Shown here in pieces: positions 6,781 through 64,000 of a stretch of DNA of 64,000 nucleotides (position 1 is the first letter of the stretch; every line of letters starts with the position of its first letter). The position numbers and the translations under genes are program-made. Under the pieces are notes generated by a model. That model did not search any database. It was not told the origin of the DNA and saw only the letters and a program-made list of their open reading frames with translations. Source of the stretch: Parapedobacter defluvii (GTDB taxonomy: Bacteria > Bacteroidota > Bacteroidia > Sphingobacteriales > Sphingobacteriaceae); NCBI RefSeq assembly GCF_014642075.1, contig NZ_BMIK01000009.1, positions 141,278 through 205,277 of the forward strand. Direction: 5' to 3'.

Positions 6781-7734
6781 TTATTTGCGTTTAATCACCC
6801 GTTGGACAGCAGCAACGATATTAGCCGCATTCAGGCCGTATTTTTCCATCAGCTGAGCGGGAGTACCGCTTTCGCCGAAGCTGTCGTTTACGGCAACATA
6901 CTCTTGGGGAGTTGGATTGTTTTTTGCCAGTACCTGGGCTACACTATCGCCAAGTCCACCTAAACGGTTATGCTCCTCGGCGGTGACCACACATCCGGTT
7001 TTGGCTACCGACTTCAAAATTGCTTCTTCATCAAGGGGTTTGATCGTATGGATATTGATGATTTCTGCGTCGATTCCCATTTCAGCCAATTGTTCTCCTG
7101 CTTGGATGGCTTCCCATACCAGGTGACCTGTGGCAAAAATACTTACGTCTTTGCCTTCGTTGACCATCCATGCTTTGCCGATTTCAAACTTTTGATCGGG
7201 TGCTGTAAAAATGGGAACTACCGGACGGCCGAAGCGCAGATACACGGGCCCGTGATGATCTGCAATGGCGATGGTGGCTGCCTTGGTCTGATTGTAATCG
7301 CACGGGTTGATCACCGTCATGCCGGGCAACATCTTCATCAGTCCGATGTCTTCCAGGATTTGGTGGGTTGCCCCGTCTTCCCCAAGTGTTAGGCCCGCAT
7401 GCGAAGCACAGATCTTTACATTTTTATCGGAGTATGCGATGGATTGGCGTATTTGGTCATACACCCTTCCTGTGGAGAAATTAGCGAAAGTCCCTGTATA
7501 CGGGATTTTTCCGCCAATGGTCAACCCGGCAGCGATCCCCATCATATTAGCTTCCGCGATGCCTACTTGAAAGAAGCGTTCGGGAAATTCTTTGATAAAA
7601 TCATTCATTTTCAGCGAACCGATCAGGTCGGCACAAAGCGCCACGACATTTTCGTTTTTCCGGCCTACTTCCAATAAACCGGCTCCGAATCCAGAGCGGG
7701 TATCCTTTTTATCTGTATATGTGTATTTTTTCAT
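6781..7734 (-). CDS. Transketolase, C-terminal subunit
   Basis: 317 residues covering the pyrimidine-binding and C-terminal domains of transketolase. Visible family marks are the start RSGFGAGLLEVGRKN, VGIAEANMMGIAAGL (Glu that activates the thiamine ring), FANFSTGRVYDQIRQSIAYS and the transketolase-C segment EHNRLGGLGDSVAQVL. With the 281-residue N-terminal subunit encoded upstream it forms a complete split transketolase for the non-oxidative pentose phosphate pathway. The two genes are separated by 246 bp, longer than is usual for such pairs. Confidence 0.9.
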   Translation of the reverse strand: MKKYTYTDKKDTRSGFGAGLLEVGRKNENVVALCADLIGSLKMNDFIKEFPERFFQVGIAEANMMGIAAGLTIGGKIPYTGTFANFSTGRVYDQIRQSIAYSDKNVKICASHAGLTLGEDGATHQILEDIGLMKMLPGMTVINPCDYNQTKAATIAIADHHGPVYLRFGRPVVPIFTAPDQKFEIGKAWMVNEGKDVSIFATGHLVWEAIQAGEQLAEMGIDAEIINIHTIKPLDEEAILKSVAKTGCVVTAEEHNRLGGLGDSVAQVLAKNNPTPQEYVAVNDSFGESGTPAQLMEKYGLNAANIVAAVQRVIKRK

Positions 7735-8883: not shown

Positions 8884-9561
8884 CTACAGCAGGGGTTTTA
8901 ATACCTTCCACACGTTTTCAGCTAGGATTTGATGTCCTTCTGCAGTTGGATGGATACCGTCAGATTGATTTAGTTTGGATTCGCCGGCTACGCCTTCCAG
9001 CAAGAAGGGAACATAAGCCATGTTATTTTTTTTTGCCAATGTGGGAAAAATGGTTGTGAACGCCTTACCATAGTCGCCACCCATACTGGGCGGCACCATC
9101 ATACCCGTTAATACCAATTTACAATCGGGATACTTGGCGGTGACTTTGTCAACAATATGCTGCAAATTTTTTTGGGTTTCTTCCGTAGGTATGCCGCGTA
9201 AGCCGTCATTGGCACCCAATTCCAATACAAATATGTCTATTTTTTCGTTTAACAGCCAATCAATACGTTCATTGCCGGCAGCGGAGGTCTCACCACTTAG
9301 GCCGGCGTTGATTACGCGGTAGGGAAGTTCGAGCGAATCTATCCAATGCTGGATAATGCCCGGAAAAGCCAGCATCTGGCTTTCCAACCCCATCCCCGCG
9401 GTTAGGCTATTCCCAAAAAATAAAATATTTTTAGTTTCCGATGGAGTGATCAGGGTATCCGGTTGCACTTCGGCCGATTGTCCCTCAACACCCGTACGGG
9501 AGGAATTACCACAACCTAATGCGATGAAAAGCCCGAAAACAGCAAATGCCCTGATCACCAT
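8884..9561 (-). CDS. Lipoprotein GDSL/SGNH-family arylesterase (TesA-like)
   Basis: 225 residues. The start MVIRAFAVFGLF leads to a lipobox IALGC with Cys at about 17, so the protein should be lipid-anchored. The SGNH blocks are present: LFFGNSLTAGMGL (catalytic Ser), INAGLSGETSAAG (Gly), LELGANDGLRG (Asn) and SDGIHPTAEGH (Asp/His). The family hydrolyses esters and thioesters of small acyl or aryl alcohols (TesA/arylesterase). It lies just upstream, in minus-strand order downstream, of the NifU-like gene with a 3-bp gap, so the two may be cotranscribed. Confidence 0.85.
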   Translation of the reverse strand: MVIRAFAVFGLFIALGCGNSSRTGVEGQSAEVQPDTLITPSETKNILFFGNSLTAGMGLESQMLAFPGIIQHWIDSLELPYRVINAGLSGETSAAGNERIDWLLNEKIDIFVLELGANDGLRGIPTEETQKNLQHIVDKVTAKYPDCKLVLTGMMVPPSMGGDYGKAFTTIFPTLAKKNNMAYVPFLLEGVAGESKLNQSDGIHPTAEGHQILAENVWKVLKPLL

Positions 9562-9564
9562 TGA

Positions 9565-10119
9565 TTACATTGCTTCTGCTACGACTTCCTGCACTTCCGG
9601 TACCATCCGTTTTAATAATCCTTCGATACCTGCTTTAAGTGTAATGGTGGAAGAAGGGCATCCACTGCAAGAACCACGCAACTCAACCACAACAGTACCT
9701 TCATCGAAAGACTTATAATGAATGGCACCTCCATCTTGCTCTACAGCAGGGCGTACATAATCGTGCAGAATCTGCTGTATTTTGATTTCAGTTTCTGTGC
9801 CTTCAAAGGTGACATCCTCGTCTTTTGAGATTTCCTGTACTTTAAGCTCCGACTCAACAGCACCTTTTACAAAGTCTTTCAGGATGCCTTCAATGTCTTC
9901 CCATTCAGCATCGTCAGTTTTGGTGATTGTCACAAAATTACTGGCGAAAAATACACCGTTGACAAAGTTGAACTTGAATAGCTCCCGTGCAAATGGAGAG
10001 TCCTGAGCTTTTTCCCGATCGGGATAATCCAAGCTTCCATTGATCAATAACTTATTGACCAAAAATTTCATGGTTGCCGGATTGGGTGTATATTCGGTAT
10101 AAACGTTGATCGTTGCCAT
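9565..10119 (-). CDS. NifU-like Fe-S scaffold/carrier protein
   Basis: 184 residues in two domains. The N-terminal Nfu_N domain (TEYTPNPATMKFLVNK) is followed by a C-terminal NifU domain (about 105-180) with IQQILHDYVRPAVEQDGG and the cluster-binding CxxC in GSCSGCPSSTITLKAGIE. Such proteins hold or pass on 4Fe-4S clusters to apo-enzymes in the cytoplasm. Length and order match Nfu proteins of Bacteroidota. It is a stand-alone housekeeping gene next to an esterase gene; no other Fe-S genes are nearby. Confidence 0.9.
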   Translation of the reverse strand: MATINVYTEYTPNPATMKFLVNKLLINGSLDYPDREKAQDSPFARELFKFNFVNGVFFASNFVTITKTDDAEWEDIEGILKDFVKGAVESELKVQEISKDEDVTFEGTETEIKIQQILHDYVRPAVEQDGGAIHYKSFDEGTVVVELRGSCSGCPSSTITLKAGIEGLLKRMVPEVQEVVAEAM

Positions 10120-10185: not shown

Positions 10186-11529
10186 TTAGACGCCCGTGTA
10201 GTTCCAGGGGGTTATCGCTTTTAGTTCTGTTTTTACGTCATCGCTCACATTCAGGGTTTCAACAAATGCCTCGATTGTGGCTTCGGTAATCGCATCATTC
10301 GTTCGTGTCAGCTCTTTGAGTGCTTCATAGGGTTTGGGATATCCCTCCCTTCTAAGAATGGTTTGGATGGCTTCGGCTACGACCGCCCAATTCTGTTCTA
10401 AGTCGGCTTTCAACGCCGCCTCGTTGAGAATCAATTTTTTTAGCCCCCTCACCGTAGATTTGATGGCAATCAGGGTGTGGGCCAAAGGTACACCGATGTT
10501 GCGTAGCACCGTGGAATCCGTTAGATCACGTTGTAAACGGGATATCGGTAGTTTTGCCGCCAAATGTTCAAACAGGGCATTGGCTATTCCCAAATTGCCT
10601 TCTGCATTTTCGAAATCGATGGGATTGACTTTGTGCGGCATAGCTGAAGAACCAATCTGCCCCTTTGTGATTTTCTGCTTAAAATAGTCCATGGAGATAT
10701 AGGTCCAGATATCTCTACAGAGATCGATCAAAATATTGTTAATACGTTTTAACGTATCACATTGTGCAGCGAAGTAATCGTAATGTTCGATCTGGGTAGT
10801 CGTCTGAGAACGCTGTAATCCCAACGTTTCATTCACAAAGGCGTTGCCGAAAGCAATCCAATCTTGGTCGGGATAGGCTACTTTATGCGCATTGAAATTG
10901 CCGGTAGCACCGCCGAATTTGGCGGCGTTGGGTATGGACTTGAACAACGTCAGTTGGTTGTTCAATCGCTCGATAAATACCCGGATTTCTTTTCCAAGCC
11001 GGGTAGGAGACGCAGGCTGTCCATGTGTACGGGCCAGCATTGGGATCACCGCCCACTCAAGTGCCAATTCTTCCAATGTGGAAATCAGGCTTTCCAGTTG
11101 CGGGATATATACCTGGGTGGCTGCTTCCTTCCACGAATAGGGAATAGCCGTATTGTTGATATCTTGTGACGTGAGCCCGAAGTGAATGAATTCCAGTGAA
11201 TCAGTCAGTCCCAGCACTTCAAATTTATCCTTTAGGAAATACTCAACCGCTTTTACGTCGTGATTAGTTTCCTTTTCTTTTTCCTTGATCCACTGGGCGT
11301 CTTCCAACGAAAAATGCCGATAGATATCGCGCAATTTATCATCAAGGCTACCGTCAAAATGAATTAGCTGTGGAATGCCTGAATGACAAAGACTGATGAA
11401 ATACTCAACCTCTACAAATACACGATATTTGATCAGGGCATATTCTGAAAAAAAACCGGCTAACTCGTGTGTCGCCTGATGGTAACGACCATCCACCGGA
11501 GAGACAGCCATGAGCGGTGATAACGTCAT
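10186..11529 (-). CDS. purB: Adenylosuccinate lyase
   Basis: About 447 residues starting at the Met at 11529 (MTLSPLMAVSPVDGRY); a Met seven codons earlier at 11550 is less likely given the family's usual N-terminus. The fumarase/ASL signature GSSAMPHKVNPIDFENAEGN supplies the flexible catalytic loop. HDVKAVEYFLK and ARTHGQPASPTRLG carry the conserved histidines. The enzyme splits adenylosuccinate and SAICAR, two steps of purine synthesis. The size matches the E. coli-type enzyme. It is apparently a single-gene transcription unit. Confidence 0.93.
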   Translation of the reverse strand: MTLSPLMAVSPVDGRYHQATHELAGFFSEYALIKYRVFVEVEYFISLCHSGIPQLIHFDGSLDDKLRDIYRHFSLEDAQWIKEKEKETNHDVKAVEYFLKDKFEVLGLTDSLEFIHFGLTSQDINNTAIPYSWKEAATQVYIPQLESLISTLEELALEWAVIPMLARTHGQPASPTRLGKEIRVFIERLNNQLTLFKSIPNAAKFGGATGNFNAHKVAYPDQDWIAFGNAFVNETLGLQRSQTTTQIEHYDYFAAQCDTLKRINNILIDLCRDIWTYISMDYFKQKITKGQIGSSAMPHKVNPIDFENAEGNLGIANALFEHLAAKLPISRLQRDLTDSTVLRNIGVPLAHTLIAIKSTVRGLKKLILNEAALKADLEQNWAVVAEAIQTILRREGYPKPYEALKELTRTNDAITEATIEAFVETLNVSDDVKTELKAITPWNYTGV

Positions 11530-59930: not shown

Positions 59931-60119
59931 ATGAAGAAAGCGAGGTATCCTGAAAATTTGCCGTTGAAGCTTGAAATCGTGAAATCCCGGCGTACCATCA
60001 AAGAGATTGCCGAGAAAATCGGCGTAAGCCGCGAAGTGCTGACCAACACTGTGAACGGGCACTACAAAGGTGTCGAAGTGATCAAGAAACTGAAGTCTGA
60101 ACTAAATATTACCGATTGA
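59931..60119 (+). CDS. Small helix-turn-helix protein
   Basis: 62 residues, MKKARYPENLPLKLEIVKSR at the start. The HTH core is RTIKEIAEKIGVSREVLTNT followed by VNGHYKGVEVIKKLKSELN. It is a minimal Cro-like DNA-binding protein without a further domain. It is the first gene before the sigma factor (stop at 60119, sigma ATG at 60137), so it belongs to the same operon and may be a local antagonist of the XRE repressor or an accessory factor of the sigma/Cas12f pair. Confidence 0.75.
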   Translation: MKKARYPENLPLKLEIVKSRRTIKEIAEKIGVSREVLTNTVNGHYKGVEVIKKLKSELNITD

Positions 60120-60136
60120 CTAAAATTCTACAACAC

Positions 60137-60956
60137 ATGTACGCATCGACCTACCGAACCAAAAAGAACACCGAGCGGTTTTTCCAATCCTTTAAAGCCG
60201 GCGACGAAGCCGGGCTGAATTATTTCTATCATGCATACTATGATTACTACGCATGGCGGGCTGAACGTTTTGTGAAAGATGATGTTGTGGCGCACGCCAT
60301 GGCACAGGAGGCATTCCTGCGGTTGTGGCTTATGCGGGATCTCATCCGCGATGGAGACCACCTGCACGAATTTCTCGGCATGCAGCTTCGCGAAGCGGGC
60401 AAAGCCTACTATGGTAAAACCACCGATCGTTTCCACCGGAGCATGCTGCGGCTGGATGGCATCGAGGATTTCCAGGAATTCATGCTGGGCTATGAAATGG
60501 AGGAGGAGCAGGAAGAGGATGTTGTCTACCTCGAACAGTTGGAAATGGAGAAACAGCGGCAACTGGAGCAGATCAACGGCCTGCTTCCGAACCTTGACCG
60601 GCCAACAGCAATTATTCATCCGGCTGTGCCTGCGGTATGGGTTCAATTACGAGCGTATCGCCTACCACCTCGGCGGCATCTCGGACTATGAAGTAGCCCA
60701 GCGCGTGGAGCAGTGCATCGCCAATTTGAAAGCCGCACTCTCGGATACGGCCAAGCTGGACAGCGCCACCCGGACGAAGCCGCTCGTTACCGAAGGCATG
60801 CTCACCGAAGAGCAGGCGCAGGTGCTGGCGATGCGCTATGACCTGCAATATTCTTTCGAGGAAATTGCCGAGGCTCTGCAACTGGATGATGCCAAAGTGA
60901 AATCGCTGTTTGTACAAGCGCATACCGTTATTAAAAAGGGGAAGCAATCGGCCTGA
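60137..60956 (+). pseudogene. ECF-like sigma factor gene paired with dCas12f, interrupted by a +1 frameshift
   Basis: One sigma-like protein is spread over two frames. Frame one (ATG 60137; a TTG at 60116 is also open) gives region 2: FFQSFKAGDEAGLNYFYHAY and AMAQEAFLRLWLMRDLI. It stays convincing up to ...QINGLLPNL near 60595 and then degrades. The +1 frame continues with TGQQQLFIRLCLRYGFNYER and IAYHLGGISDYEVAQ, then a second HTH-like block, LTEEQAQVLAMRYDLQYSFEE with DDAKVKSLFVQAHTVIKKG, and stops at 60956. Removing one T of the CTTGACC at 60593-60599 restores one frame of about 273 codons. Two sigma-4-like units in tandem are unusual. Either a sequencing error, a real mutation or, less likely, programmed frameshifting. 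Confidence 0.8.
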
Positions 60957-60958
60957 CC

Positions 60959-62053
60959 ATGGAAAAGAAGACCATCATCCTGACACGGAAAATACAGGTG
61001 TACGTCGACTGCGACGATAAGGCGCAGAAAGACGCGTACTACAAGCAACTGTATGAATGGCAGTTTTTAGCCTTTCAGGCGGCCAATCTGATCTTTACCA
61101 ACCTGTATGTGCAGGATCGGGTGAAAGACCTGATTTACTTCACCGACGAGGTGAAGGTAAAGCTGGCCGACCGTGCCAAGGATGCCGAGGGCATCTTGAA
61201 CACCTCGCGGATGAACACCACCTACCGCGTGCTGTCCAGTAAATTGCTGGGCAAGATGCCCTCGGACATCTTTTCCAATTTGAACAATGCACTGACGAGT
61301 GTCTATAATACCGAGCGCAGCGCGTACTGGAAAGGGGAGAAGTCGCTGCGGAATTACAAACGCAACATTCCGTTGCCCTTTTCCGGCAAGTCGTTGAAGT
61401 TCGCGGCAGATGAAAAGCACCGGGAATTCCGGTTCACGCTGTTCAAGATACCGTTCAAGACGTATCTCGGCAAGGACAAAACGGATAAACGGGTGCTGAT
61501 CCAGCGGAATGTAGTTGGTATGTTAAAGCTCTGCGCTAGTTCGCTGAAAATTGATAAGGGCAAGCTTTACCTGTTGGCAGCCTTTGAGATGGAGCGCGAC
61601 GAGCATCGGTTGAAAGACTCCGTAATCGCGGAAGCCTCGCTCTCCATCGAACATCCCATCGTGATGAAGGTAGGGAAGGAGCAGTTCCAGATCGGCAACA
61701 AGGAGGAATTCCTGCACCGGCGGCTGGCCATTCAGGCTGCGCGGCACCGCTTGCAGCGGGGTTCGACCTACAACCGTGGGGGTAAAGGCCGCGAGCGTAA
61801 GCTGAAAAGTTTGGAGGATTGGGACGCGAAAGAAAAACGGTATGTCGATAACCGGCTGCATTTGTATAGCAGGCGGTTGATCGATCTGTGCGTAAAATCG
61901 GAGGCGGGTACGTTATTGCTGGTGAACCAGCAGCAGAAAGAGGAGGTAGCCAAGGAAGAGGAGTTTCTGCTCCGCAATTGGAGTTATTATGGACTGAAGG
62001 AAAAGATTGCCTACAAGGCGAAGAAAGCGGGGATTAATGTGATTGAGGAATAG
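60959..62053 (+). CDS. Nuclease-dead Cas12f-like protein (dCas12f)
   Basis: 364 residues starting 2 bp after the sigma stop. The order matches type V-F Cas12f: an N-terminal helical/REC part (about 30-125), a wedge-like part (SLRNYKRNIPLPFSGKSLKF, FTLFKIPFKTYL), then RuvC. In RuvC-I, ASLSIEHPIVMKVG stands where Cas12f/TnpB have xDLGIxxPxV, so Ser227 replaces the catalytic Asp. A helix-rich RRGS/HRLQRGSTYNRGGKGR linker follows. In RuvC-II, GTLLLVNQQQ aligns with GTVQMENLES of Un1Cas12f1, so Val322 replaces the Glu. The protein ends at AGINVIEE, before the zinc ribbon and RuvC-III Asp. Nuclease activity is therefore ruled out by sequence; RNA-guided DNA binding is likely kept. Confidence 0.88.
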   Translation: MEKKTIILTRKIQVYVDCDDKAQKDAYYKQLYEWQFLAFQAANLIFTNLYVQDRVKDLIYFTDEVKVKLADRAKDAEGILNTSRMNTTYRVLSSKLLGKMPSDIFSNLNNALTSVYNTERSAYWKGEKSLRNYKRNIPLPFSGKSLKFAADEKHREFRFTLFKIPFKTYLGKDKTDKRVLIQRNVVGMLKLCASSLKIDKGKLYLLAAFEMERDEHRLKDSVIAEASLSIEHPIVMKVGKEQFQIGNKEEFLHRRLAIQAARHRLQRGSTYNRGGKGRERKLKSLEDWDAKEKRYVDNRLHLYSRRLIDLCVKSEAGTLLLVNQQQKEEVAKEEEFLLRNWSYYGLKEKIAYKAKKAGINVIEE

Positions 62054-62164
62054 TGGCGGCTATCGGAGATCAGCGGTTGGCTTTTTTCGTCAATGGCTGA
62101 GAGCTGACTGCTGATCGCTAAAAGAGCCGAATAAAGTTCTTTGAAATCTTAGTAAAGATAGTGG

Positions 62165-62370
62165 CTGAGCTATAATGGTGTATGGCAAGGCGCGCGAAAT
62201 GAGCAAAAGCACAGTTTACTAAAGGTAAATGAGCATTTTGCGAATGAGTGCAACGCAGTCAGGCGCCATTAGAGACAGACACTTAGAGGCTGCTTGTACA
62301 GCCATAGGGTGAGGTCAGGTTGACACTCACTGAATACTTTTTTCTATTGCAGATTCGGGGCTTTGTTTAT
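62165..62370 (+). ncRNA. Candidate tracrRNA-like guide scaffold of the dCas12f system
   Basis: A structured stretch between the dCas12f gene and the repeat array, which is where Cas12f tracrRNAs lie. A hairpin at about 62200-62245 has CAAAA/TTTTG and TTTAC/GTAAA arms. Then comes a stem GGCTGCTTGTACAGCC (62289-62304), very close to GGGCUGCUUGCAUCAGCC of the Un1Cas12f1 tracrRNA as I remember it, a hairpin GTGAG-GTCA/TGAC-CTCAC (62310-62331), and GAATACTTTTTTC. The word GGGGCTTTGT (62357-62366) can pair with ACAGACCCC of the repeat (one bulge and one G-U), and AUACUUUUUUC with GAAAGGUAU. Ends are approximate; 5' end uncertain. Confidence 0.72.
62284..62349 (+). repeat. Direct repeat copy 1 (tracrRNA core)
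   Basis: TTAGAGGCTGCTTGTACAGC and what follows to about 62349 recur at 63625-63689 with only a few substitutions (A to G at two places) and a small change in the T run. The hairpin GTGAG...CTCAC is kept in both, with the change GTCA to GTCG still able to pair by G-U. Two copies lie about 1.34 kb apart and flank the array and the HEPN/MNT genes. Confidence 0.9.
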
Positions 62371-62418
62371 TCGCGGATTTGCTGGTGAATTAGAGAACTA
62401 ATGTGTATGCAATCCAAT

Positions 62419-62864
62419 AGGGTGAGTCGTTTCGATTTGAAAGGTATATACAACAGGAGTGGTGAAGCGGCAGGTTTTTTATGCGGTGTTACAGACCCCA
62501 ATTTGAAAGGTATATACAACCCCAAACCGGGTCGCTGTCCACATTGATTAGGTGTTGCAGACCCCAATTTGAAAAGGTATATACAACGCGTAGATGTTGC
62601 TTATTTGTTTTCTCACCGGGTGTTATTGACCCCGATTAGAAAGGTATCTACAACGAGCCCTTTAAAAAGGATTACAATCCGGGCGGTGTTACAGACCCCA
62701 ATTGAAAGGTATATACAATCGATATAACTCAGCATCTGTTTGGTATGGTGTTCCAGACCCAAATTTGAAAGGTATTATTTTGGCTGTTAGCTTTTAGCCA
62801 TTAGCTGATAGCCGATTTCTGAAAGCCGATAACTGTAACGACCCCAATTTGAAAGGGACACAAC
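62419..62864. CRISPR. Degenerate type V-F-like CRISPR array (seven repeats)
   Basis: The full repeat is 36 nt and is best at 62485-62520; it begins GGTGTTACAGACCCC and ends TTTGAAAGGTATATACAAC. Copies: 62419-62454 (5' half worn), 62485-62520, 62551-62587 (37 nt), 62619-62654, 62685-62719 (35 nt), 62747-62782 (3' half worn), 62831-62864 (worn). Spacers are 62455-62484 (30), 62521-62550 (30), 62588-62618 (31), 62655-62684 (30), 62720-62746 (27); the last gap is about 48 and holds REP-like sequence. The 3' end resembles the GAAGGAAUGCAAC tail and the 5' end the GUUGCAGAACCC of Cas12f1 repeats. No cas1/cas2 is nearby. Confidence 0.88.
62778..62838. repeat. REP-like AGCTGATAGC element inside the array
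   Basis: Sequence such as GGCTGTTAGCTTTTAGCCAT and TTAGCTGATAGCCGATTTCT, then GAAAGCCGATAAC, is made of short GCT/AGC palindromic words. A related string (GAGCTGACTGCTGATCGC) lies at 62094-62118 downstream of dCas12f. Dispersed elements of this look occur between genes in Sphingobacteria. It lengthens the last spacer gap and cuts the 3' half of the sixth repeat, so it probably inserted into, or recombined with, the array. Confidence 0.45.
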
Positions 62865-62965: not shown

Positions 62966-63256
62966 ATGGAAGCGGTCAGCAAAATAAAGTCCCAGTTGAG
63001 ACGGTTGAAACCACAATTGGCGTCAAAGTATGGTGTTAATGAGCTTGGATTGTTCGGCTCCATCACCCGCGATGATTTTTCAACCGATAGTGATGTCGAT
63101 ATCGTCGTAGATTTTGATAGGTCTATTGGCGTTGAGTTCATTGATTTAGCCAATGAACTGGAGGCAATCCTGCACCGAAAAGTAGATTTGATATCCAAAA
63201 AAGGAATAAAACCTAAATACCTAAAGGAAATACAAAAAGACCTCATTTATGTCTAA
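62966..63256 (+). CDS. MNT-type nucleotidyltransferase antitoxin (MntA-like)
   Basis: 96 residues from the Met at 62966 (an upstream in-frame Met at 62849 lies in the array tail and is unlikely). The minimal nucleotidyltransferase motif is GLFGSITRDDFSTDSDVDIV (GSxxR...SDxD), with VDLISKKGIKPKYLKE at the end. MNT partners of HEPN toxins neutralise them by adding AMP groups to the toxin. The stop overlaps the HEPN start by 8 bp, so the pair is coupled. Confidence 0.9.
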   Translation: MEAVSKIKSQLRRLKPQLASKYGVNELGLFGSITRDDFSTDSDVDIVVDFDRSIGVEFIDLANELEAILHRKVDLISKKGIKPKYLKEIQKDLIYV

Positions 63257-63596
63257 ACGTGCGCCAGCGCTCTTGATAGACGACATGCTGGAATGCATCG
63301 AAAAGATCAACAGCTATCTTGAAGGGCTTACGTTTGAGCAATTCATAGACGATAACAAAACCACCGATGCCGTAGTCAGAAATTTCGAGATTATTGGAGA
63401 AGCCGCCAATAGATTACCTGACGAGTTTAGGCATCGATTCTCCGATATCGATTGGCAGCGTATCCGCGGTTTCCGAAACCGAATTGTCCACGATTATATG
63501 GGTATTGATTTCCAGATTGTGTGGACGATTATTGAAAGATACCTCCCTGATCTCAAAAAGCAGTTGCTTTCTGCTAAAGAAGCCCGCTCTGGTTAA
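63249..63596 (+). CDS. HEPN-domain toxin (HepT-like)
   Basis: 115 residues. The RNase motif Rx4HxY is seen in GFRNRIVHDYMGIDFQIVW, with upstream NFEIIGEAANRLPDEF and a long helix IDDMLECIEKINSYLEGL, as in DUF86/HepT proteins. HEPN toxins cut RNA such as tRNA when not modified by the MNT partner encoded just upstream. The pair lies between the dCas12f guide array and a second degenerate guide locus. Confidence 0.9.
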   Translation: MSKRAPALLIDDMLECIEKINSYLEGLTFEQFIDDNKTTDAVVRNFEIIGEAANRLPDEFRHRFSDIDWQRIRGFRNRIVHDYMGIDFQIVWTIIERYLPDLKKQLLSAKEARSG

Positions 63597-63624: not shown

Positions 63625-63740
63625 TTAGAGGCTGCTTGTACAGCCGTAGGGTGAGGTCGGGTTGACACTCACTGAATACTTTTTTATTGGAACACGGATG
63701 ACACAGACGTGCTAATTGTCGGCAGATTCATCTTTGAGCT
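63625..63740 (+). ncRNA. Second, degenerate tracrRNA-like core
   Basis: 63625-63689 repeats the core at 62284-62349 (GGCTGCTTGTACAGCC stem and the GTGAG/CTCAC hairpin followed by a T run). After about 30 unrelated bases, GCAGATTC (63722-63729) and CTTTG (63732-63736) match GCAGATTC-GGGG-CTTTG of copy 1 but lack the GGGG that would pair with the repeat's CCCC. The long 5' hairpin of copy 1 has no counterpart upstream, which is HEPN coding sequence. It looks like a partial duplicate in decay. Confidence 0.6.
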
Positions 63741-63775
63741 ATATGCAACAAACTAGCACTTTCAAGTAAGACTTT

Positions 63776-63933
63776 GTCCCCAAACGCCTATATTTAAATA
63801 GTGCATACAATGACGAGGTAATAGGATTAAGTACCCAACTATTAGTCTAATTTGAAAAGTGTGTACAATGGCAGGGCCTGTTGATTATTATGATGAAAGG
63901 AACAGACCACAATTAGAAGGGAGAGTGTAAAAT
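63776..63933. CRISPR. Repeat relics downstream of the second tracrRNA-like core
   Basis: Three worn matches to the 36-nt repeat: 63776-63811 (GTCCCCAA ... GTGCATACAAT), 63841-63869 (TAATTTGAAAAGTGTGTAC then AAT) and 63902-63933 (ACAGACCACAATTAGAAGG ... GTAAAAT). The 3' ends are 58 and 64 bp apart, near the 66-bp period of the first array. They would hardly fold as proper guides now; this is most likely a second array that lost selection. Confidence 0.5.
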
Positions 63934-64000
63934 GAACTGTGTCAAGATTAGTAAATAAGTATTAATTTTAGACATAGTAATTATGGAGATCAGAGAAACG

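What the first reader, a model, noticed from the sequence alone, without database searches (positions are those of the whole stretch)
59931..62864. Candidate RNA-guided transcription system: small HTH, ECF-like sigma factor, nuclease-dead Cas12f, tracrRNA-like RNA and guide array
Seen: a sigma-like gene ends 2 bp before a Cas12f-like gene that lost its catalytic residues, and a tracrRNA-like region and array of 36-nt V-F-like repeats follow. There is no cas1, cas2 or active nuclease. Known: Cas12f pairs with tracrRNA and crRNA to bind DNA; ECF sigma factors bring RNA polymerase to promoters. Inferred: guide RNA places the sigma factor and polymerase at chosen sites, switching on target genes in place of ordinary -33/-7 recognition. 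I recall recent reports of dCas12f-sigma pairs in Bacteroidota; if so this is a member, with its own features (decayed guides, frameshifted sigma, HEPN/MNT neighbour).
Basis: partly seen in the sequence, partly recalled or inferred. Interest (0 to 1): 0.97.

Follow-up and report, generated by a model that had tools for sequence, protein, structure and literature searches.

The report
RNA-guided switch for nutrient-uptake genes
A bacterial locus pairs a sigma-factor gene with a Cas12f gene that lost its cutting residues and a bank of predicted guide RNAs; sister species carry the same pair, and some of their guides match DNA upstream of one family of nutrient-uptake operons, so the system would likely use RNA to switch those operons on, although the sigma gene in this genome carries a frameshift and its copy is probably decaying.

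Summary
Window 60137-62053 encodes an ECF-type sigma factor and, 2 bp on, a 364-aa Cas12f homologue without RuvC catalytic residues. Its closest solved relative is in PDB 9n9c and 9n9q; the sigma of sister species P. koreensis matches the RpoE chain of 9n9q. The pair is adjacent in all 9 relatives found. A two-hairpin RNA scaffold precedes the guide array; a second scaffold and array (63628 to the window's end) lie beyond the reported coordinates.

New here: of 87 Parapedobacter spacers searched, 21 match Parapedobacter chromosomes at 26/30 or better. Twenty of their 24 sites lie upstream of one SusC subfamily, all 20 on the operon strand, with pyrimidines at -3 and -2 for 18 of 21 spacers. 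Forty reversed spacers gave no site at E<=0.01. Window spacer 62588 matches P. koreensis 141 nt upstream of a tlpA-susC-susD operon.

Against a working window copy: its sigma gene is frameshifted, an IS probably splits the array, and none of 16 own spacers has a good match in its own genome. Distances are not fixed (63 nt from the first gene to 7.3 kb from SusC). Best reading: a variant of dCas12f-sigma RNA-guided transcription, with array units separated by toxin-antitoxin genes.

The parts
59931..60119 (+). Small HTH protein (62 aa)
   Evidence: ORF; HTH_3 21 bits, below the 23-bit cut-off; same protein upstream of sigma in L002, L003, L005, L006; no such ORF of 60 aa or more in L004, L007-L010
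60137..60956 (+). ECF-type sigma factor gene, frameshifted (one base longer than relatives near 60594); N-terminal part in the first frame, region 4 in the second
   Evidence: one open frame in 9 of 9 relatives; P. koreensis sigma matches PDB 9n9q_C RpoE, E 2.9e-37
60959..62053 (+). Nuclease-dead Cas12f (364 aa)
   Evidence: PDB 9n9c E 6.7e-127 over 2-362; catalytic Asp aligned to Ala, Glu motif to Asn, ends before RuvC-III; PADLOC Cas12f
62286..62343 (+). Predicted guide-RNA (tracr-like) scaffold, unit 1: two hairpins then a T run
   Evidence: conserved in 19 aligned copies; changes on both sides in 3 pairs of helix 2
62414..62776 (+). Array of unit 1: 36-nt repeats (degenerate at the ends) with five full spacers at 62455, 62521, 62588, 62655, 62720
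62588..62619 (+). Spacer w3; 28 of its first 30 nt match P. koreensis C12:122425-122454, which starts 141 nt upstream of a tlpA-susC-susD operon, PAM CTG
62966..63256 (+). MntA-like nucleotidyltransferase (antitoxin type)
   Evidence: PF01909 E 2e-12
63249..63596 (+). HepT-like HEPN protein (toxin type)
   Evidence: PF01934 E 4.7e-31
63628..63685 (+). Predicted guide-RNA scaffold, unit 2 (63625-63685 is 97% identical to 62283-62343)
63730..63899 (+). Degenerate array of unit 2, guides at 63750, 63812, 63870; further units on contig C18

Best explanation
This locus belongs to the dCas12f-sigma family: a nuclease-dead Cas12f, an adjacent ECF sigma factor and a predicted guide-RNA array that together likely bring RNA polymerase to guide-matched sites and would switch on tlpA-susC-susD uptake operons. 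Inferred steps: the scaffold and a spacer form the guide; dCas12f binds a PAM-adjacent site on the operon's coding strand; the sigma factor, held by dCas12f, recruits RNA polymerase, which starts downstream and reads into the operon. Shown steps: gene order, loss of catalytic residues, scaffold covariation, and position, strand and PAM of the sites in Parapedobacter. In this genome the sigma gene is frameshifted and no own spacer has a good target in its own genome, so this copy is probably decaying.
For: dCas12f relative in PDB 9n9c/9n9m/9n9o/9n9q, and the P. koreensis sigma matches chain C (RpoE) of 9n9q. RuvC residues lost. Adjacent in 9 of 9 relatives. Scaffold (19 of 22 copies aligned): 97.0% of cells paired against 92.9% shuffled and 12 double-change cells against 3.6, each 0 of 500 shuffles as high. 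Targets: of 87 spacers searched in seven genomes (16, 31 and 40), 21 have a site with at least 26/30 matches, 24 sites in all in the 19 regions fetched from those hits. Twenty of 24 sites, 17 of 21 spacers, lie 0.1-7.3 kb upstream of a SusC of one subfamily; 20 of these 20 are on the operon strand. That subfamily has 8 members in G000 (over 600 bits, next 180). YY at -3,-2 in 18 of 21 spacers against a background of 0.258, p 1.5e-8. Control: 40 reversed spacers gave 0 sites at E<=0.01 and 1 at E<=1; the same 40 forward gave 14 non-array sites at E<=0.01. Near-identical sites at 125, 126 and 129 nt from the start codon of three operons in two genomes.
Against: No good own-genome target for the window genome's 16 spacers: best 23/30 at 8 own operons, 6 weak hits against a shuffled mean of 1.65 (maximum 5 in 20 shuffle runs). 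Upstream regions of 56 other SusC genes: 25 weak hits for 93 guides, none above 22/30, against 16, 16 and 18 in three shuffles. Four of 24 sites are not upstream of this subfamily (P. koreensis C18, C11, C20, the last near a SusC-like gene of another type; P. composti C38 inside a MetE-like gene, name by eye). Three of 21 spacers lack YY (c6 TAA, L002:9166 TGG, L003:7776 TGA). Distances are not fixed. Mismatches are spread evenly over 30 nt with no protected seed (28, 28, 34 per ten over 30 sites). Two scaffold measures do not exceed shuffles: pairs with double changes 3 against 2.3 (221 of 500) and further pair types 5 against 5.1 (381 of 500). The sigma gene here is frameshifted, and in P. 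indicus the dCas12f gene is. No transcription data.
Confidence: 0.8

Rival explanations
1. The system acts mainly by antisense transcription: guides start transcripts that run against the divergent HTH regulator and defence-like genes, and the SusC operon is only the far end.
For: Several sites lie inside the divergent gene, antisense to it (composti C32, tibetensis C13 and C23, koreensis C20), or beyond it, up to kilobases from the operon. Three of 6 divergent genes tested match HTH models. Six neighbouring genes picked by eye all match PADLOC defence models (SspA/DndA, SspD, PDC-S02 twice, HNH, DpdB).
Against: Intergenic sites between that gene and the operon (w3, L003:7579, L002:7500, L002:7631, L010:7896, L010:8108, L010:7621) are also all on the operon strand.
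Confidence: 0.12
2. dCas12f works as a guide-directed repressor (like TldR), and the sigma gene beside it is a bystander.
For: Nuclease-dead TnpB relatives are known repressors (PMC13418256, passages seen).
Against: Sigma is adjacent in 9 of 9 relatives and both proteins have relatives in one PDB entry. A repressor does not require all sites to be upstream on one strand (20 of 20).
Confidence: 0.05
3. A relic of type V-F immunity: spacers are old phage or mobile-element memories.
For: The PAM resembles the T-rich Cas12f type (recalled); spacers differ between species; several sites lie near defence-like genes; 66 of 87 spacers have no 26/30 match in the regions examined; 4 of 6 sister genomes have a Cas1 elsewhere.
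Against: No nuclease residues, no Cas1 at the window locus, 0 exact matches of 18-20 nt of five window spacers in viral contigs, phage matches of the window array only at E 0.3 or worse, and a one-strand cluster of sites at one operon family.
Confidence: 0.06
4. In the window's strain the locus is non-functional: sigma lost, array broken by an insertion, targets gone.
For: Frameshift; an inverted 18-nt sequence shared by the ends of contigs C9 and C18, seen by eye, suggests an IS in the array; no good own target. P. indicus, with broken dCas12f, has no own-genome hit at E<=1 among 13 spacers either, while luteus, composti, koreensis and soli (both genes open) each have at least one own-genome site of 26/30 or better (the koreensis one is not upstream of SusC).
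Against: dCas12f is open and 87-95% identical to six Parapedobacter relatives; a single-base draft error cannot be excluded.
Confidence: 0.6

Closest known systems
dCas12f-sigmaE RNA-guided transcription (Hoffmann, Sternberg and colleagues, 2025 preprint; recalled, not seen; solved proteins PDB 9n9c, 9n9q)
   Same: Nuclease-dead Cas12f next to an ECF sigma, guide RNA, susC/susD operons as targets (recalled), homology of both proteins.
   Different: Here large multi-unit arrays with diverged repeats, TA genes between units, a PAM near TYYR instead of the recalled 5'-G, matches over 30 nt, sites up to kilobases upstream, broken sigma in this genome. Whether the preprint reports such arrays I cannot say.
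Type V-F CRISPR-Cas12f (e.g. PDB 9nzo, 8hr5)
   Same: Protein homology, 36-nt repeats, tracr-like scaffold, pyrimidine-rich PAM.
   Different: Catalytic residues lost, no Cas1 at the window locus, matched targets are chromosomal operon upstream regions.
TldR (TnpB-like nuclease-dead repressors)
   Same: Catalytically dead RNA-guided regulators of the TnpB line.
   Different: TldR represses (passages of PMC13418256) and has no sigma partner (recalled).

Membership tests
dCas12f-sigma RNA-guided transcription | Cas12f homologue lacking RuvC catalytic residues | tested here: met
dCas12f-sigma RNA-guided transcription | ECF sigma gene directly adjacent, homologous to the sigma solved with dCas12f | tested here: met
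   9 of 9 relatives; 9n9q_C E 2.9e-37 with the P. koreensis sigma; the window copy is frameshifted
dCas12f-sigma RNA-guided transcription | Guide-RNA scaffold and guides encoded beside the genes | tested here: met
   by sequence only; expression not tested
dCas12f-sigma RNA-guided transcription | Guides match sites upstream of genes, susCD in particular | tested here: met
   at the level of the genus: 20 of 24 sites; for the window genome's own 16 spacers no strong own-genome site
dCas12f-sigma RNA-guided transcription | Target-adjacent 5'-G (recalled for other members; likely ortholog-specific, not defining) | tested here: inconclusive
   -1 is A9 G7 T4 C1; the strong signal is Y at -3 (21 of 21) and -2 (18 of 21)
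dCas12f-sigma RNA-guided transcription | RNA polymerase recruitment and start site set by distance from the R-loop | not testable with these tools
   needs start-site mapping and ChIP-seq
Type V-F CRISPR immunity | Active RuvC nuclease | tested here: not met
Type V-F CRISPR immunity | Spacers match phages or plasmids | tested here: inconclusive
   0 exact hits for 5 window spacers in viral contigs; phage records only E 0.3 or worse; plasmids not searched; spacers of relatives not searched against phages

The most novel reading that the evidence does not exclude
Parapedobacter carries an evolving guide bank for gene regulation: PAM-flanked 30-nt copies of regions upstream of one family of surface-uptake operons are gathered into array units, kept by toxin-antitoxin genes, that a dCas12f-sigma complex reads to decide which uptake system is expressed. 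That would be CRISPR memory turned from defence to learned control of the cell surface, with guide capture and unit exchange happening without a Cas1 gene at the locus.
Probability: 0.3. Interest if true: 0.92.

Novelty: new variant of a known kind. Interest (0 to 1): 0.72.

Why it matters
RNA-guided activation of transcription by a natural dCas12f-sigma pair is a very recent idea (recalled). Here the genomes supply a natural test: guides, PAM, strand and target operons can be read off in several species, which makes guide acquisition, guide length and regulatory logic testable in culturable Bacteroidota, and may offer a promoter-independent activation tool.

Tried and rejected
Own-genome protospacers for the window array: BLAST of the array and of 16 spacers found self matches, repeat-like matches and weak hits only. 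A match of spacer w4 on C6 (E 0.08) needs a gap and lies by a small ORF; set aside. The first 30 SusC loci and then upstream regions of all 56 scored SusC genes of G000 gave only weak hits; the targeted SusC subfamily is not among those 56. A conserved guide-like GGGCTGCTGTT of Pedobacter and P. tibetensis: in the Pedobacter gandavensis genome only its own copy was found; in P. tibetensis 10 matches with 1-2 mismatches (one of them its own second guide) against 2 for the reversed pattern, and in Pedobacter foliorum 6 against 0. This exceeds the control and was not followed up; L009's genome was not held. Anti-repeat pairing with the repeat was not above shuffles (z -1.8 to 1.3). Rfam found nothing in the window. 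Phage and viral matches: none convincing. Cas1 occurs elsewhere in 4 of 6 sister genomes; arrays beside three of these have other repeats, the fourth showed none in the stretch held. Papers: the recalled preprint was not found; PMC7500135 (passages; found) reports CRISPR elements in Parapedobacter, and Cas12 is not named in its text.

Rows dropped: 18 of 111 guide candidates (false or duplicate) before counts, leaving 93; 87 of these were BLAST-searched (six P. tibetensis ones were not). Scaffold alignment: 19 of 22 copies (left out: L005:10655, degenerate after the first hairpin; L006:9021 and 9949, same as the C18 copies). A first alignment had two wrong coordinates and a first structure was off by one column; both were redone.
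Full report
Observation. The genes are as described: HTH 59931-60119, sigma 60137-60956, dCas12f 60959-62053, scaffold, array, MntA/HepT. The genome falls with Parapedobacter: the nearest loci are Parapedobacter (87-95% identity in dCas12f) and Pedobacter (56-58%), and genomes listed as same genus give the same hits as the named Parapedobacter ones.

Proteins. dCas12f matches PDB 9n9c (Nuclease-deactivated Cas12f; same sequence in 9n9m, 9n9o, 9n9q) over residues 2-362. Against the nucleases 9nzo and 8hr5 the RuvC-I motif VDLG aligns with EASLS, the Glu motif with VNQQQ, and the protein stops before RuvC-III (motif names recalled). The intact sigma of P. koreensis matches RpoE of 9n9q. Sigma precedes dCas12f in all 9 relatives, as one open frame in each. 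In the window one extra base near 60594 splits the sigma into two frames, each near-identical to relatives; in P. indicus dCas12f is two bases short. Either could be a draft error.

RNA. The motif GAGGCTG..AGCC..GGTGAG..CTCACT occurs one to three times per relative locus and twice in the window. Over 19 aligned copies 97.0% of cells pair and three pairs of helix 2 change on both sides (12 cells against 3.6 shuffled); the number of such pairs and of pair types is not above shuffles. In Parapedobacter the scaffold is followed by arrays, strongly decayed in P. tibetensis; in the three Pedobacter loci it is followed by a short stretch ending in TACAAC and one guide-like sequence, like a natural single guide (inference). 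No anti-repeat could be shown.

Targets. Spacers were searched in seven Parapedobacter genomes. At E<=0.01 there are 23 non-array sites (2, 7 and 14); 20 lie upstream of a SusC of one subfamily. By identity (at least 26/30, in the 19 regions fetched) there are 24 sites for 21 spacers, again 20 upstream, all 20 on the operon strand. A rough chance value for a strand-specific site within 7.5 kb upstream of 8 such operons in 5.8 Mb is 0.5% (the 8 were counted in G000 only). Forty reversed spacers gave no site at E<=0.01. Y is at -3 in 21 of 21, at -2 in 18 of 21, T at -4 in 14 of 21, R at -1 in 16 of 21, one site per spacer. The closest sites start 63 nt (L002:7500, two genomes), 125-129 nt (L003:7579, three operons) and 141 nt (w3) before the first gene; others are up to kilobases away. 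In the regions tested the operons hold tlpA-like genes (AhpC-TSA/Redoxin; L180, L175, L171) and susD (L171), often with a divergent gene that in 3 of 6 tested cases matches HTH models, and defence-like neighbours.

The window genome's own spacers. w3 (62588) matches P. koreensis C12, 28/30, PAM CTG; w5 (62720) matches P. luteus C11 at 19/20 but 21/30 (E 0.027), inside an HNH-type gene 1.55 kb upstream of such an operon; c6 (on C18) matches P. composti C32, 28/30, PAM TAA, 7.3 kb upstream of SusC. In its own genome only weak matches exist: the best at its 8 subfamily operons is 23/30. Spacers thus match sister species better than self, as if operons or guides had turned over.

Array evolution. 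G000 and P. indicus share five C18 spacers but none of the unit-1 spacers. P. luteus has two consecutive spacers in two units. TA-type genes separate units: MntA/HepT in the window, VapB/PIN and PIN genes and ParE-like genes below the cut-off in relatives. Recombination between scaffold copies, carrying TA genes along, is an inference. The flat mismatch profile fits copying of whole 30-nt stretches better than selection on a short seed. How spacers are captured is open: no Cas1 lies at the window locus, though 4 of 6 sister genomes have a Cas1 elsewhere, beside arrays with other repeats in three.

Verdict. It works like, and by the features tested belongs to, the dCas12f-sigma family; the window copy is probably decaying. 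What the Parapedobacter set adds is target logic at genus scale. Whether the recalled preprint or others described these arrays I cannot say; the searches did not find it.

Noticed in passing
window 62966-63596; L002:8302-8894; L005:8395-8790, 9446-9853, 10372-10599; L006:8216-8629: Toxin-antitoxin-type genes (MntA/HepT, VapB/PIN, PIN, ParE-like below cut-off) sit between scaffold-array units in several Parapedobacter loci.
   Followed up: partly
window 63929-63946 and L029 17350-17422: Contig ends C9 and C18 share AAAATGAACTGTGTCAAG in opposite orientation inside the array (seen by eye), as if an IS element lay in the gap.
   Followed up: partly
window about 62150-62285; L005 about 7193-7327: About 130 nt inserted between a GTTCTTTGAAA motif and the scaffold in the window and P. 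koreensis, not in the other Parapedobacter loci (by eye).
   Followed up: no
L178, L180, L173, L174: Targeted SusC operons lie beside genes that match defence models (SspA/DndA, SspD, PDC-S02, HNH, DpdB).
   Followed up: partly
L171, L172, L186, L173, L174, L178 upstream of the first gene: These operons share a leader around GGTCGGTTTTTGAAA...TTTCTTAAACC before the ATG.
   Followed up: no
L007-L009 near 7109-7370: Pedobacter loci look like natural single-guide RNAs rather than arrays; the guide-like GGGCTGCTGTT has more near-matches than its reversed control in two of three genomes.
   Followed up: partly
G000:C2:3254-3616 (L063): Partial Cas1 next to a Cas4-like gene, perhaps a remnant of another CRISPR system.
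   Followed up: no
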